Assembly (NCBI RefSeq): GCF_900106035.1
Contig: NZ_FNUC01000003.1
Location: forward strand, 806,001-870,000
Length of the DNA: 64,000 nt
Reading direction: 5' to 3'
DNA from: Jiangella alba
GTDB taxonomy: Bacteria > Actinomycetota > Actinomycetes > Jiangellales > Jiangellaceae
The stretch's first letter is position 1; each line of letters opens with the position of its first letter. This document shows, in pieces, positions 31,323 to 33,974 of this stretch. The translations under genes were made by a program, and so were the position numbers. The notes beneath the pieces are model-generated. The model had not been told where the DNA came from and ran no database searches. It worked only from the letters and a program-made list of their open reading frames with translations.

Positions 31323-31475
31323 CGCGGCCTGCTCTGGCCGGTTCGGCCTGCCGGGTCGGGCCGAGCGCAGCCTCGCCCGGATCTCATCGCCGTGCGACGG
31401 CTCCTTCGCAGGCAGCGCCTGCATGGCTTCCTGCTGCGTCGGACGTCCGTATGACCGTTCGCCATGTGCGACCAA

Positions 31476-31505
31476 GGGGTGGTGCCGCAGCGGCGGCACC
31501 ACCCC
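31476..31505. terminator. Perfect 13-bp terminator hairpin
   Basis: GGGGTGGTGCCGC (31476-31488) pairs exactly with GCGGCACCACCCC (31493-31505) around AGCG. It is 12 bases beyond the Ro60 stop and about 150 bases after the ACT gene, so it can serve both strands. The remainder of 31323-31475 holds nothing recognisable. Confidence 0.8.
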
Positions 31506-31517
31506 ATGATCGTCGTG

Positions 31518-33083
31518 CTAGAACGGCCAGCCGGCCGAGCGGCCGTCCTCGAGCAGGCCGATCAGCGTGAACGTGGCGTCGTTGAGACCGCCGAACTCGT
31601 GCCGGTTCGCCCGGCCCGCCGCCAGCACCGTCGGCCGGTAGCCGCCGAGGTTGACGCCGTAGACAGGCACCCTCGCCGGCACGCTGCCCACCGCGTCGTA
31701 GCCGCCCGGCCCGGGGAACGTCTGCATGTCGGTCACGATCACCACGCGGTCGTGCCGCCGGTACGTCGCCCGCACCGCCTCGGCGAGGCGCGTGCCGTGG
31801 CCCGCCTCGCCCACTCGCCCGACCAGCCGCTGGACCTCCGTCAGCAGCGACGCCGCGGGCGCGACCGGGTGCCTGAACACGCCGTCGGCGAATCCGCGCA
31901 GGTCGACGTCGTTGCCGCGCTTCGCCAGCGCGATGCCGAACACCGCCGCGGCTTCGATGGCCGAGATCGACGACCGTGCCGCGACCGGCTGCCGCATCGA
32001 CGCCGAGGTGTCGACGAGCACGAGCGTGCGGCCCTCGAGCGCCGGCACGTTCGCCGTCGCCGCCTCGATGGCGCGGTCGAGCGCGTACGCCCACCGCAGA
32101 GACTGCGCGCTACGGAACGCGGCGACGTACCGGAACGGGAACTGCCGCGAGCGGCGCACCTCGCCGGGGTCGGCCAGCTTCGCCGCCACCCGTTCGGCGA
32201 CGGCGTCGCCCACTCCGGCCCGGTCGAAGTTGCGCAGGTTGCGCAGCAGCGCCATGGAGCCCATCGACGGGATGACGGCCTCCCACGCCGCGCGGTCGAG
32301 GGGCCCGCCGAGCCAGCCGGCCAGCGACTCCCACGTCACGCCCGCGGCGGCGAGCGTGTCGCCGTCGAGGTGCCGGCGCCGTTCGCCGGGCGGGACGGCC
32401 TGCAGGGCCGCGTGCGCCGCGATGACCGGCAGCGCGGACGGTGGCGTGGTCGCGCGCCCGTGCCTGCGGTCGAGCAGCCACCGGAACAGCGCCGACTGCG
32501 CCTCGTCGCGCGGCCGCACGTGGCACAGTTCGATGACGTCGGCCATGCGCCAGGCCCGCGAGACGCCGTCGTACTTGAGCGCCGCCCGCTCGGTGTACAG
32601 CCGCCGTGCGGCGTCGGCGACGCCCCGCTTGATCGGCTGCGGCAGCGCGCGCCCGTACCGCGCCGTGAAGTAGGCCAGCACCTCGGCCGGCTCGTCGGCC
32701 CGCCGCAACGCCCCGTCGACGACCCGGCGGCCGTGCGGCCCGCCGGCGCGCACGTACTCCACCGCCGCGACGACCGGCGCCGACCGCAGGTTCGCGGTGT
32801 CGCGCAGCCACGGCACGAAGCGGGCAACCCACTCGGCGTCCTCGCTGGTCGCGGCGTGGACGAGCGTGCGGAACCGCTCGTCGCGGTCGTCGGCGCTCTC
32901 GTAGAACGTCTCCTCGCCGACGAGGTTGGTGACGGCCAGCAGGAACAGCTCGCTCTTGACGTCGCGGACGTAGGCGGGCGCGCCCTCGTGCGTGCGGGTG
33001 CGCGCCGTTCGCAGCGCCCGGATGGGGCTGGTCAGCATGGCGGTGACACCGGCGGCCTTGCTGATGCGGTCGAACTTGCTCAT
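31518..33083 (-). CDS. rsr: Ro60/TROVE-domain RNA-binding protein (Rsr orthologue)
   Basis: 521 aa. An N-terminal TROVE domain of HEAT-like helices (about residues 1-355; start MSKFDRISKAAGVTAM) forms a ring that binds Y RNA and structured RNA ends. A C-terminal von Willebrand A domain begins RTLVLVDTSASMRQPVA (MIDAS DxSxS) and continues VVIVTDMQTFPGP. In bacteria Ro60 orthologues take part in rRNA and RNA decay with nucleases such as PNPase, tethered by Y RNA. ATG at 33083 follows AAGGAGGGC. A Y RNA is encoded immediately upstream on the same strand. No RtcB or PNPase gene is seen nearby. Confidence 0.95.
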   Translation of the reverse strand: MSKFDRISKAAGVTAMLTSPIRALRTARTRTHEGAPAYVRDVKSELFLLAVTNLVGEETFYESADDRDERFRTLVHAATSEDAEWVARFVPWLRDTANLRSAPVVAAVEYVRAGGPHGRRVVDGALRRADEPAEVLAYFTARYGRALPQPIKRGVADAARRLYTERAALKYDGVSRAWRMADVIELCHVRPRDEAQSALFRWLLDRRHGRATTPPSALPVIAAHAALQAVPPGERRRHLDGDTLAAAGVTWESLAGWLGGPLDRAAWEAVIPSMGSMALLRNLRNFDRAGVGDAVAERVAAKLADPGEVRRSRQFPFRYVAAFRSAQSLRWAYALDRAIEAATANVPALEGRTLVLVDTSASMRQPVAARSSISAIEAAAVFGIALAKRGNDVDLRGFADGVFRHPVAPAASLLTEVQRLVGRVGEAGHGTRLAEAVRATYRRHDRVVIVTDMQTFPGPGGYDAVGSVPARVPVYGVNLGGYRPTVLAAGRANRHEFGGLNDATFTLIGLLEDGRSAGWPF

Positions 33084-33113
33084 GGGAGTGCCCTCCTTCC
33101 GGGCGTTGTTTCT

Positions 33114-33190
33114 CTGGGTCGCTGCCGAGAACTCGAGTGAGCAGGGGTCGTTGGCCTGTCGGCCGCTTCTACCCGAAAGAAGTAACCCAG
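33114..33190 (-). ncRNA. Possible second structured RNA element in the Ro60 leader
   Basis: On the minus strand CTGGGT (33190-33185) pairs with ACCCAG (33119-33114). Inside are three small hairpins: CTTCT/AGAAG (33182-33178 with 33170-33166), GGCC/GGCC and CTGC/GCAG. It lies between the Y RNA and the Ro60 start. It could be a second Y RNA, as many species have two, or simply the folded leader of the Ro60 mRNA. Confidence 0.3.
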
Positions 33191-33214
33191 CTCGTCGCAT
33201 CGGCGAACGTGGGA

Positions 33215-33341
33215 CCAGGGCGAGAACAGTGCGGCGAAGGCGATTGCCGCTCTGCCGAATTGAGCTACAGTCCGCAGACCGCCGGGATTCGAACCCGGAA
33301 CACGCAATTCCGAAGTAGCCCTCGCCTGCGCATCGCCCTGG
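33215..33341 (-). ncRNA. yrlA: YrlA-type bacterial Y RNA with circularly permuted tRNA-like domain
   Basis: Read 33341 to 33215. Terminal stem CCAGGGCGA (33341-33333)/TCGCCCTGG (33223-33215), then TGCG/CGCA with a 6-base 3' bulge. Inside, in order: ATTGC (33308-33304), later pairing GCAAT (33247-33243), equals an anticodon stem; 5-base variable loop; T arm CCGGG-TTCGAAT-CCCGG (33298-33282); a 5-bp acceptor-like stem closed by a TGCG tetraloop (33281-33268); TA (tRNA positions 8-9); D arm GCTC-AATTCGGCA-GAGC (33265-33249). T arm precedes D arm, so it is not a tRNA gene. Y RNAs with tRNA-like domains are known beside Ro60 genes; the Ro60 ATG is 131 bases downstream. Exact ends are not known. 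Confidence 0.85.
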
Positions 33342-33363
33342 CGTTCAGGGGCAGCCGCATCGA

Positions 33364-33380
33364 CGGGCGTTGACCGCCCG
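33364..33380. promoter_or_regulatory. 6-bp hairpin upstream of the Y RNA
   Basis: CGGGCG (33364-33369)/CGCCCG (33375-33380), 5-base loop. It may insulate the Y RNA from transcription of the toxin operon. No clear -10/-35 pair for the Y RNA was found in 33342-33440. Confidence 0.35.
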
Positions 33381-33442
33381 GTTCCCTCGTGGGATCGATG
33401 ATGTGCTGCATGACGACAATGCTGCCGGTGTCGCAGCCGGGC

Positions 33443-33459
33443 CGCAATGGACTATTGCG
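33443..33459 (-). terminator. Hairpin after the MazF-like toxin gene
   Basis: CGCAAT (33443-33448)/ATTGCG (33454-33459) with a 5-base loop, 10 bases beyond the toxin stop on the minus strand. On the plus strand it is followed by a short T-rich run. Confidence 0.45.
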
Positions 33460-33468
33460 CCGCTGTTT

Positions 33469-33753
33469 TCAGTCGTCGTGCAGCAGGAAGGTCAAGTGCC
33501 TCCGGGCGTCGGCCAACTGCCGCCCCGTCAGCGTCGCGACGTGCTGGGTGAGCCAGTGCCGCGGGTGCATCGCCAGCCGGTCGGCGAACACCGTCCCCGC
33601 GTCCGTGCCGACGGCGAACGGCTCGAACTGCTCCGGCGGCGGCCCGACGACGGCCGTGATGACCTGGTTCAGCTGGCTGGAGTTGTAGATCGCGTTGCTC
33701 AGCACGATCCGCAGCGACCCGTCCTCGAGCCGCCAGATCTCGCCCGGGTTCAC
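33469..33753 (-). CDS. MazF/PemK-like toxin of a type II toxin-antitoxin pair
   Basis: 94 aa. The start VNPGEIWRLEDGSLRIVLSN corresponds to the conserved GEIW strand of MazF/PemK/CcdB-fold toxins, and the fold is followed by VITAVVGPPPEQFEPF. MazF toxins cleave mRNA or other RNA; activity here is inferred. GTG at 33753 overlaps the antitoxin TGA (GTGA); another GTG at 33771 would add six residues. Its place next to Ro60 and a Y RNA is notable, though toxin-antitoxin pairs move easily. Confidence 0.72.
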   Translation of the reverse strand: MNPGEIWRLEDGSLRIVLSNAIYNSSQLNQVITAVVGPPPEQFEPFAVGTDAGTVFADRLAMHPRHWLTQHVATLTGRQLADARRHLTFLLHDD

Positions 33754-33974
33754 GACGGGTTCTGCTGCCACACGAGCAGATCACGCAGCCGCTGCTCGTC
33801 GCGGTGCTCCATCGGCTCCGGCGCCCGGACCTGCTCGAGGAGGCGGCGGTAGTGCTCGCGCCGCAGCGCCCGCTCGACGAACTCCGACCGGTTCAACCCC
33901 GCCTGCCGCGCATCGGCGTCGATGTCGGCCAGCGTCGATGGGTCGAGGGTGACGGTCATCTTCTCCTTCGCCAT
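33750..33974 (-). CDS. Ribbon-helix-helix antitoxin
   Basis: 74 aa. The N-terminal ribbon-helix-helix DNA-binding part KMTVTLDPSTLADIDADARQ (strand, then helix) and GLNRSEFVERALRREHY are typical of CopG/MazE-like antitoxins. The C-terminal acidic tail probably binds the toxin. It lies upstream of and overlaps the toxin gene. The promoter region has two direct repeats, indicating autoregulation. Confidence 0.82.
   Translation of the reverse strand: MAKEKMTVTLDPSTLADIDADARQAGLNRSEFVERALRREHYRRLLEQVRAPEPMEHRDEQRLRDLLVWQQNPS

What the first reader, a model, noticed from the sequence alone, without database searches (positions are those of the whole stretch)
33084..33350. A Y RNA built as a circularly permuted tRNA beside the Ro60 gene
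Seen: minus-strand 33341-33215 folds with a 9-bp closing stem around, in order, a 5-bp anticodon-like stem strand, a 5-base variable loop, a canonical T arm (loop TTCGAAT), a 5-bp acceptor-like stem capped by a C(TGCG)G tetraloop, the TA of tRNA positions 8-9, a D arm with 4-bp stem and GG-bearing loop, and the second anticodon-stem strand. Every tRNA element is present but the chain is cut at the anticodon, from which the Ro60-binding-type stem extends. Known: tRNA-mimicking Y RNAs (YrlA) occur next to bacterial Ro60 genes and can tether nucleases such as PNPase. Inference: this is this organism's Y RNA and would be missed by ordinary gene and tRNA finders.
Basis: partly seen in the sequence, partly recalled or inferred. 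Interest (0 to 1): 0.9.

Follow-up and report, generated by a model that had tools for sequence, protein, structure and literature searches.

The report
tRNA-mimicking Y RNA beside Ro60
Next to a bacterial gene for the RNA-binding protein Ro60 lies the gene of a small non-coding RNA that folds like a tRNA opened at its anticodon, followed by a second, shorter partner RNA; the first belongs to a known family (YrlA) that standard annotation misses here, so the finding is sound but mostly expected.

Summary
Every named element is present on the minus strand (33341-33215), and the RNA matches Rfam YrlA over the whole model (47.9 bits, E 1.3e-9), below the curated cut-off of 69; ARAGORN and Rfam at cut-off find nothing. 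Comparison is strong: 22 of 37 pairs show compensatory changes over 20 chosen sequences; the tRNA pair 15-48 is G-C or A-U in 78 of 79 related modules. In 246 genomes of the class the RNA occurs in 27 of 29 with Ro60 and 0 of 217 without. It is a new member of a known kind: the circular permutation of YrlA is already in print (PMC11472068). Both RNAs and Ro60 form a block of about 2.1 kb absent from a sister genome. The most novel observation lies in relatives: of 57 modules with a longer spacer, 48 have a fully paired anticodon-like hairpin (U33 in 53, A38 in 54 of the 57), so there the tRNA is opened inside the anticodon stem. Against: energy folding does not give the tRNA head. Transcription, Ro60 binding and effector are untested.

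The parts
33215..33341 (-). YrlA-type Y RNA with a circularly permuted tRNA-like head (ends are structural, not mapped)
   Evidence: Rfam RF02553 at 33214-33339, 47.9 bits, E 1.3e-9; own covariance model R1 129.6 bits (the window is one of its training rows)
33333..33341 (-). 5' strand of the 9-bp closing stem (Ro60-binding-type)
   Evidence: helix 1: 98.9% of cells paired, 6 of 9 pairs with compensatory change
33215..33223 (-). 3' strand of the closing stem
33318..33326 (-).
   Evidence: helix 2: 86% of cells paired, 5 of 9 pairs with compensatory change; two of its nine positions are unpaired in 12 of 20 sequences each
33233..33241 (-). 3' strand of the second helix
33312..33317 (-). conserved UACUUC between second helix and tRNA head
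   Evidence: alignments A2 and A6; also in the short Y RNAs
33304..33308 (-). anticodon-like stem, strand of tRNA positions 39-43
   Evidence: helix 3: 90% of cells paired, 5 of 5 pairs with compensatory change
33243..33247 (-). anticodon-like stem, strand of tRNA positions 27-31
33282..33298 (-). T arm (CCGGG-UUCGAAU-CCCGG)
33268..33281 (-). acceptor-like 5-bp stem capped C(UGCG)G; 7 bp in the 51 hairpin-type rows of relatives
33249..33265 (-). D arm with GG in the loop; A15 matches U48 (Levitt pair)
33110..33212 (-). second, short Y RNA without tRNA head (model match; ends not mapped)
   Evidence: model R2, built without genus members, 29.4 bits, E 9.8e-6; next best in the window 14 bits; also in the three other genus members with the locus, 25 to 30 bits
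31518..33083 (-). Ro60 (Rsr) gene, 521 aa, TROVE domain; weak vWA match
   Evidence: Pfam PF05731 E 3.8e-13, vWA below its cut-off; PDB TROVE protein 9kop_A matched over residues 27-515, E 1.1e-42
33091..33098 (-). likely ribosome-binding site of Ro60 (AAGGAGGG)
   Evidence: read from sequence; kept in the genus, with one base changed in G008

Best explanation
The locus encodes a Ro60 ribonucleoprotein: Ro60 plus two Y RNAs, on the same strand just upstream. The longer RNA is a YrlA-type Y RNA. Its basal stem, with the conserved internal loop, is held by Ro60. Its head folds as an L-shaped tRNA whose chain enters and leaves at the anticodon, so the Ro60-bound stem takes the place of the anticodon loop. 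Most likely the head docks an effector, by analogy with Deinococcus the exoribonuclease PNPase, and so directs structured or Ro60-bound RNA to degradation under stress. The short RNA keeps only the Ro60-binding module and probably occupies or gates Ro60 without recruiting the effector. Shown here: anatomy, covariation, tertiary covariation, co-occurrence with Ro60. Inferred: transcription, binding, effector, role of the short RNA.
For: Rfam YrlA over the full model. Compensatory change in 22 of 37 pairs, 6 to 11 with partners slid. Levitt pair 15-48 G-C or A-U in 78 of 79 modules, none crossed. R1 matches at E 1e-6 or better in 77 of 80 Ro60 loci (the 80 are the best of a capped list, 15 of them gave training rows, and in some loci the match is a Y RNA without a tRNA head); a tRNA-like module by sequence pattern in 64 of the 80, none on the opposite strand. 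R1 in 27 and TROVE in 29 of 246 class genomes, the 27 all among the 29. In the genus both occur in the same 4 of 12 genomes. Second Y RNA found by a model without genus members. Block absent from sister genome G010. PNPase gene present.
Against: Score below the Rfam cut-off, though 0 of 15 relatives' loci reach it either. The energy model prefers another head fold. The anticodon-like stem has one mismatch each in G007 and G008. The short RNA has no unusual folding energy, z -0.45. No sigma-70-type promoter and no minus-strand terminator match was found in 33050-33500. R1 gives no match at E 0.1 in L041 and L103 and only weak ones in L071. PNPase is near-universal, so its presence says little.
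Confidence: 0.88

Rival explanations
1. The tRNA-like head is a decoy or sensor for tRNA-acting enzymes (anticodon nucleases, modification or repair enzymes) rather than a docking site for PNPase.
For: In Salmonella YrlA fragments were not seen when tRNAs are cut after DNA damage, and YrlA was proposed as a possible competitive inhibitor of that nuclease (PMC7790460, passages). Relatives keep an anticodon-like loop. tRNA gene arrays lie upstream of the locus in 5 of 22 loci scanned and around it in a phage.
Against: The window's own RNA has no anticodon loop. No such nuclease was identified here.
Confidence: 0.25
2. The RNAs are a structured 5' leader that controls translation or stability of the Ro60 message in cis.
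For: Same strand; the first RNA ends 131 nt and the second RNA's model match 26 nt before the Ro60 start.
Against: Relatives carry tandem copies at varying distance, and the tRNA-like copy in G034 lies about 1.9 kb upstream of Ro60. Described Y RNAs act in trans. Does not explain a tRNA fold. Not exclusive with the best explanation.
Confidence: 0.08
3. It is a decayed or rearranged tRNA gene without function.
For: T and D arms resemble ordinary tRNA sequences; ARAGORN places tRNAs inside Y RNAs of relatives in 9 of 22 loci scanned.
Against: Compensatory changes, closing stem 98.9% paired, strict coupling to Ro60, Levitt covariation.
Confidence: 0.01

Closest known systems
YrlA RNAs (Rfam RF02553; Salmonella YrlA structure PDB 6CU1)
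   Same: Next to Ro60; closing stem; T arm, capped acceptor-like hairpin, UA and D arm in the same permuted order; full-length model match.
   Different: Scores 47.9 against a cut-off of 69; GC-rich 9-bp second helix; 5-bp acceptor-like stem.
Deinococcus Ro60 (Rsr)-Y RNA-PNPase complex (RYPER; PMC8394870, passages)
   Same: Ro60 homologue, Y RNA and PNPase gene in one genome.
   Different: The complex was not tested here.
Salmonella rsr-yrlBA-rtcBA operon (PMC7790460, passages)
   Same: Ro60 with two Y RNAs beside it.
   Different: Here both RNAs lie upstream of Ro60; RtcB lies on another contig (C4) and was not found in the other three Ro60-bearing genus members.
Hairpin-type Y RNAs of other actinobacteria (57 modules in 55 of 80 loci)
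   Same: Same basal module, T arm, acceptor hairpin, D arm, Levitt pair.
   Different: 48 of the 57 have a 3-bp hairpin with a 7-nt anticodon-like loop, and the 51 aligned rows have a 7-bp acceptor stem; the window RNA lacks the loop.

Membership tests
YrlA Y RNA | Gene near Ro60 | tested here: met
   131 nt upstream, same strand; R1 in 27 of 29 Ro60 genomes and 0 of 217 others in the class sample
YrlA Y RNA | 5' and 3' ends pair into a basal stem | tested here: met
   9 bp, 6 of 9 pairs covary
YrlA Y RNA | tRNA-like domain with T, acceptor-like and D arms in permuted order | tested here: met
   order as in the Rfam consensus; permutation published for 6CU1 (PMC11472068, passages)
YrlA Y RNA | Length about 90-150 nt (PMC8394870, passages) | tested here: met
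   127 nt by structure; ends not mapped
YrlA Y RNA | Significant match to the Rfam covariance model | tested here: met
   E 1.3e-9 for 701 bases, 3.5e-9 for the genome
YrlA Y RNA | Reaches the Rfam gathering score (69 bits); a curation threshold, not a biological trait | tested here: not met
   47.9 bits; 0 of 15 relatives' loci and 0 of 60 relatives' genomes reach it
YrlA Y RNA | Binds Ro60 | not testable with these tools
   only the conserved stem and internal loop are seen
YrlA Y RNA | Dihydrouridine and pseudouridine in D and T loops | not testable with these tools
   loop sequences permit it
RYPER-type complex | Y RNA tethers PNPase | not testable with these tools
   PNPase gene present
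tRNA | Linear cloverleaf order, recognised by a tRNA finder | tested here: not met
   ARAGORN 0 genes in the window
Short Y RNA (no tRNA head) | Two stacked stems with GAUGCG, UACUUC and UUCUCGG-type motifs beside Ro60 | tested here: met
   R2 29.4 bits, E 9.8e-6; stems of the training set covary in 9 of 16 pairs

The most novel reading that the evidence does not exclude
In actinobacteria the permuted tRNA of the Y RNA exists with two opening points. In the window type the chain is opened at the anticodon loop. In the type that is commoner among the loci collected, the anticodon loop is kept as a hairpin (C32 U33 N N U36 A37 A38 as the commonest form, 34 and 35 variable) and the chain is opened inside the anticodon stem, so the Y RNA displays a complete tRNA, anticodon included. 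It could then be read by anticodon-recognising proteins, act as bait for anticodon nucleases, or carry t6A-type modification (that U36-A37-A38 favours t6A is recalled). Both types stand together in 10 of the 64 loci with a module.
Probability: 0.5. Interest if true: 0.65.

Novelty: new member of a known kind. Interest (0 to 1): 0.42.

Why it matters
It gives a clean case in which an RNA that ordinary annotation misses can be recognised by structure, and suggests that the Rfam cut-off hides such RNAs in actinobacterial Ro60 loci (0 of 15 loci tested reach it). The covariation of positions 15 and 48 across a permuted chain (78 of 79) is sequence evidence that the head folds as a true tRNA. If the anticodon-like hairpin of the relatives is real, Y RNAs could be tied to anticodon damage and tRNA quality control, which is directly testable.

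Tried and rejected
Rejected: chance similarity and decayed tRNA (covariation, Ro60 coupling). Minimum-energy folding as proof of the cloverleaf was rejected: it does not give it. Multi-copy pattern hits in L032, L044, L057 and L064 first looked like Y RNA arrays; apart from the Y RNAs themselves they fall in tRNA arrays in which one T arm precedes the next D arm. Weak Rfam YrlA hits near E 1e-4 were not used, since the same search rings in 7 of 14 control genomes. A weak R2 match (16.6 bits) beside the Ro60 fragments of G006 was not interpreted. The scan for promoters found none; its three terminator-like sites are on the plus strand. The 100-aa upstream ORF has no Pfam or NCBIfam match, and Ro60 itself has no NCBIfam match. 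Paper searches: 'Y RNA' with 'circularly permuted tRNA' gave 0 papers, although the permutation is in print in other words; 'Ro60' with 'Streptomyces' gave 3 papers, unrelated by title; 'tRNA array' with 'Ro60' gave 0; Rsr, Y RNA and actinobacteria gave 4 papers, 3 listed, unrelated by title or not read; Y RNA, anticodon, Ro60 and bacteria gave 13, of which passages of two were read and showed no anticodon-like hairpin in a Y RNA. The primary papers on YrlA were not held, so I cannot say that they do not describe it.

Full report
Observation. ARAGORN finds no tRNA in the window and Rfam at its cut-offs finds no RNA. With a relaxed threshold Rfam YrlA (RF02553) matches 33339-33214 over the whole model, 47.9 bits against a cut-off of 69, E 1.3e-9. 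In the whole genome it is the only match at E 0.001 or better.

Neighbour. The ORF 31518-33083 on the same strand is a Ro60 homologue: Pfam TROVE E 3.8e-13, and a solved TROVE protein, 9kop_A, matches residues 27-515. The RNA ends 131 nt before its start codon.

Structure by comparison. On 20 sequences chosen by eye as the window type (4 of the genus, 16 others) 92.3% of cells pair and 22 of 37 pairs show a change on both sides; with partners slid by 1 to 3 columns the values fall to 34-51% and 6-11 pairs. The closing stem is 98.9% paired, and all five anticodon-like pairs covary. Between the window and G001 three of these five pairs differ on both sides; G007 and G008 each have one mismatch in that stem. 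The D stem never varies and so says nothing. The energy model prefers another fold of the head, -61.3 against -55.2 kcal/mol, so the head rests on comparison.

Tertiary test. In tRNA, nucleotides 15 and 48 form the Levitt pair (recalled). In the permuted chain 48 precedes the T arm and 15 follows in the D arm. Of 79 modules (the window's and 78 from 64 of the 80 loci) found by a sequence pattern that constrains neither base, 46 are G-C, 32 A-U, one G-G and none crossed (the Fisher value there ignores relatedness). The window has A15-U48.

Co-occurrence. A covariance model of the 20 sequences (R1; its E-values are rough) matches at E 1e-6 or better in 77 of the 80 loci, and each of the 179 matches listed lies on the Ro60 strand. 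Fifteen of the 80 loci gave training rows; in some loci the match is a Y RNA without a tRNA head; some matches in L032, L044 and L057 are true tRNAs. L041 and L103 have no match at E 0.1, L071 only weak ones. In 246 genomes of the class R1 occurs in 27 and TROVE in 29 at E 1e-8; the 27 are all among the 29. The two exceptions are G031, whose Ro60 locus does hold a shorter Y RNA match, and G180, not examined further. In the genus the same 4 of 12 genomes have both; G006 has only Ro60 fragments.

A second Y RNA. Region 33212-33110, between the first RNA and Ro60, carries the same motifs (GAUGCG, UUACUUC, UUCUCGG). A model built from 21 short Y RNAs of the collected loci, none of the genus, finds it at 29.4 bits, E 9.8e-6; the next best place in the window has 14 bits, E 0.14. 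The three other genus members with the locus have it as well. Its folding energy is not unusual, so this part is less certain than the first.

Block. In sister genome G010 the flanks that correspond to window positions up to 31329 and from 33469 lie 95 bases apart, so both RNAs and Ro60 are missing as one block; G004 lacks a larger block. The flanking 100-aa gene has a relative in 12 of 12 genus genomes.

Relatives. Of the 79 modules 57 have a longer spacer (21-23 nt) and 22 a shorter one. Of the 22 shorter, 15 have all five anticodon-stem pairs and 5 have four. Of the 57 longer, 48 have three bases before a 7-nt loop that pair fully with positions 39-41; shifts by 1 to 3 leave 0 or 1, except +3, which leaves 18. 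C32 is kept in 47, U33 in 53, U36 in 41, A37 in 41, A38 in 54 of 57, while 34 and 35 vary. On the 51 rows with exactly 22 nt the hairpin is 95.4% paired with 19 compensatory cells, in two of its three pairs; the count of pairs and of pair types is not above shuffles, as three pairs are few. The whole module is 98.4% paired. ARAGORN, run on 22 of the loci, places tRNAs inside Y RNAs in 9; in 7 of these its anticodon is the one expected from the loop, in L084 the register differs and the L045 copy is not among the 79. Energy folding of one such RNA, L033, does not give the hairpin either. The window RNA does not have this loop.

What is known. YrlA RNAs, their Ro60 stem, tRNA-like domain and the PNPase tether are described in PMC8394870 (passages). 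The circular permutation relative to tRNA is stated in PMC11472068 (passages). In Salmonella two Y RNAs stand in an operon with Ro60 and RNA repair genes (PMC7790460, passages). YrlA has been predicted in some mycobacteria (PMC9569102, passages) and one Mycolicibacterium prophage (PMC8190616, passage). Three primary papers were not held; that they report Y RNAs near Ro60 in many bacteria and phages is recalled.

Verdict. Function in this organism is inferred.

Noticed in passing
window 33110-33212 (-): Second, short Y RNA without tRNA head between the YrlA-type RNA and Ro60.
   Followed up: yes
57 modules in 55 loci among L030-L109, e.g. L033:3774-3924, L089:3559-3711: Relatives' Y RNAs with a longer spacer; 48 of 57 have a fully paired anticodon-like hairpin with a 7-nt loop; ARAGORN places tRNAs inside Y RNAs in 9 of 22 loci scanned.
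   Followed up: partly
L032, L044, L056, L057, L064; phage locus L122: tRNA gene arrays lie upstream of the Y RNAs and Ro60 (from about 5 to 30 tRNAs); in Streptomyces phage pSt2308 annotated tRNAs lie on both sides of Ro60, with R1 matches between.
   Followed up: partly
L030, L033, L036, L037, L042, L044, L048, L057, L067, L075, L080, L089, L090, L095, L104: Rfam at its cut-off finds no YrlA in any of these 15 loci although R1 matches are strong.
   Followed up: yes
phage collection: 51 phage records encode a Ro60 relative, 45 over at least 80% of its length.
   Followed up: partly
window 33469-33974 (-): A ribbon-helix-helix protein (PF01402) and a 100-aa ORF of no known family, a toxin-antitoxin-like pair by layout (inference), flank the block.
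   Followed up: partly
window 31330-33468: The Y RNA-Ro60 block is absent as a unit in sister genome G010 (95 bases in its place).
   Followed up: yes
window 33364-33381 (-): Short hairpin just upstream of the Y RNA, with a compensatory change in G001.
   Followed up: no
G007 C1:519727-520605 (L110): A second Ro60 paralogue in one genus member, with no R1 or R2 match in the stretch held.
   Followed up: partly
G006 C22:58107-58453: Fragments of a Ro60 gene in a genus member without an R1 match.
   Followed up: no
G000 C4:468396-469490: RtcB ligase is present in this genome and in G010 (which lacks Ro60), with no match in the other 10 genus genomes.
   Followed up: no
window 31365-31464: 100-bp similarity to the start of a regulator-like gene in G009 (read by eye), possibly a remnant beside the block.
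   Followed up: no
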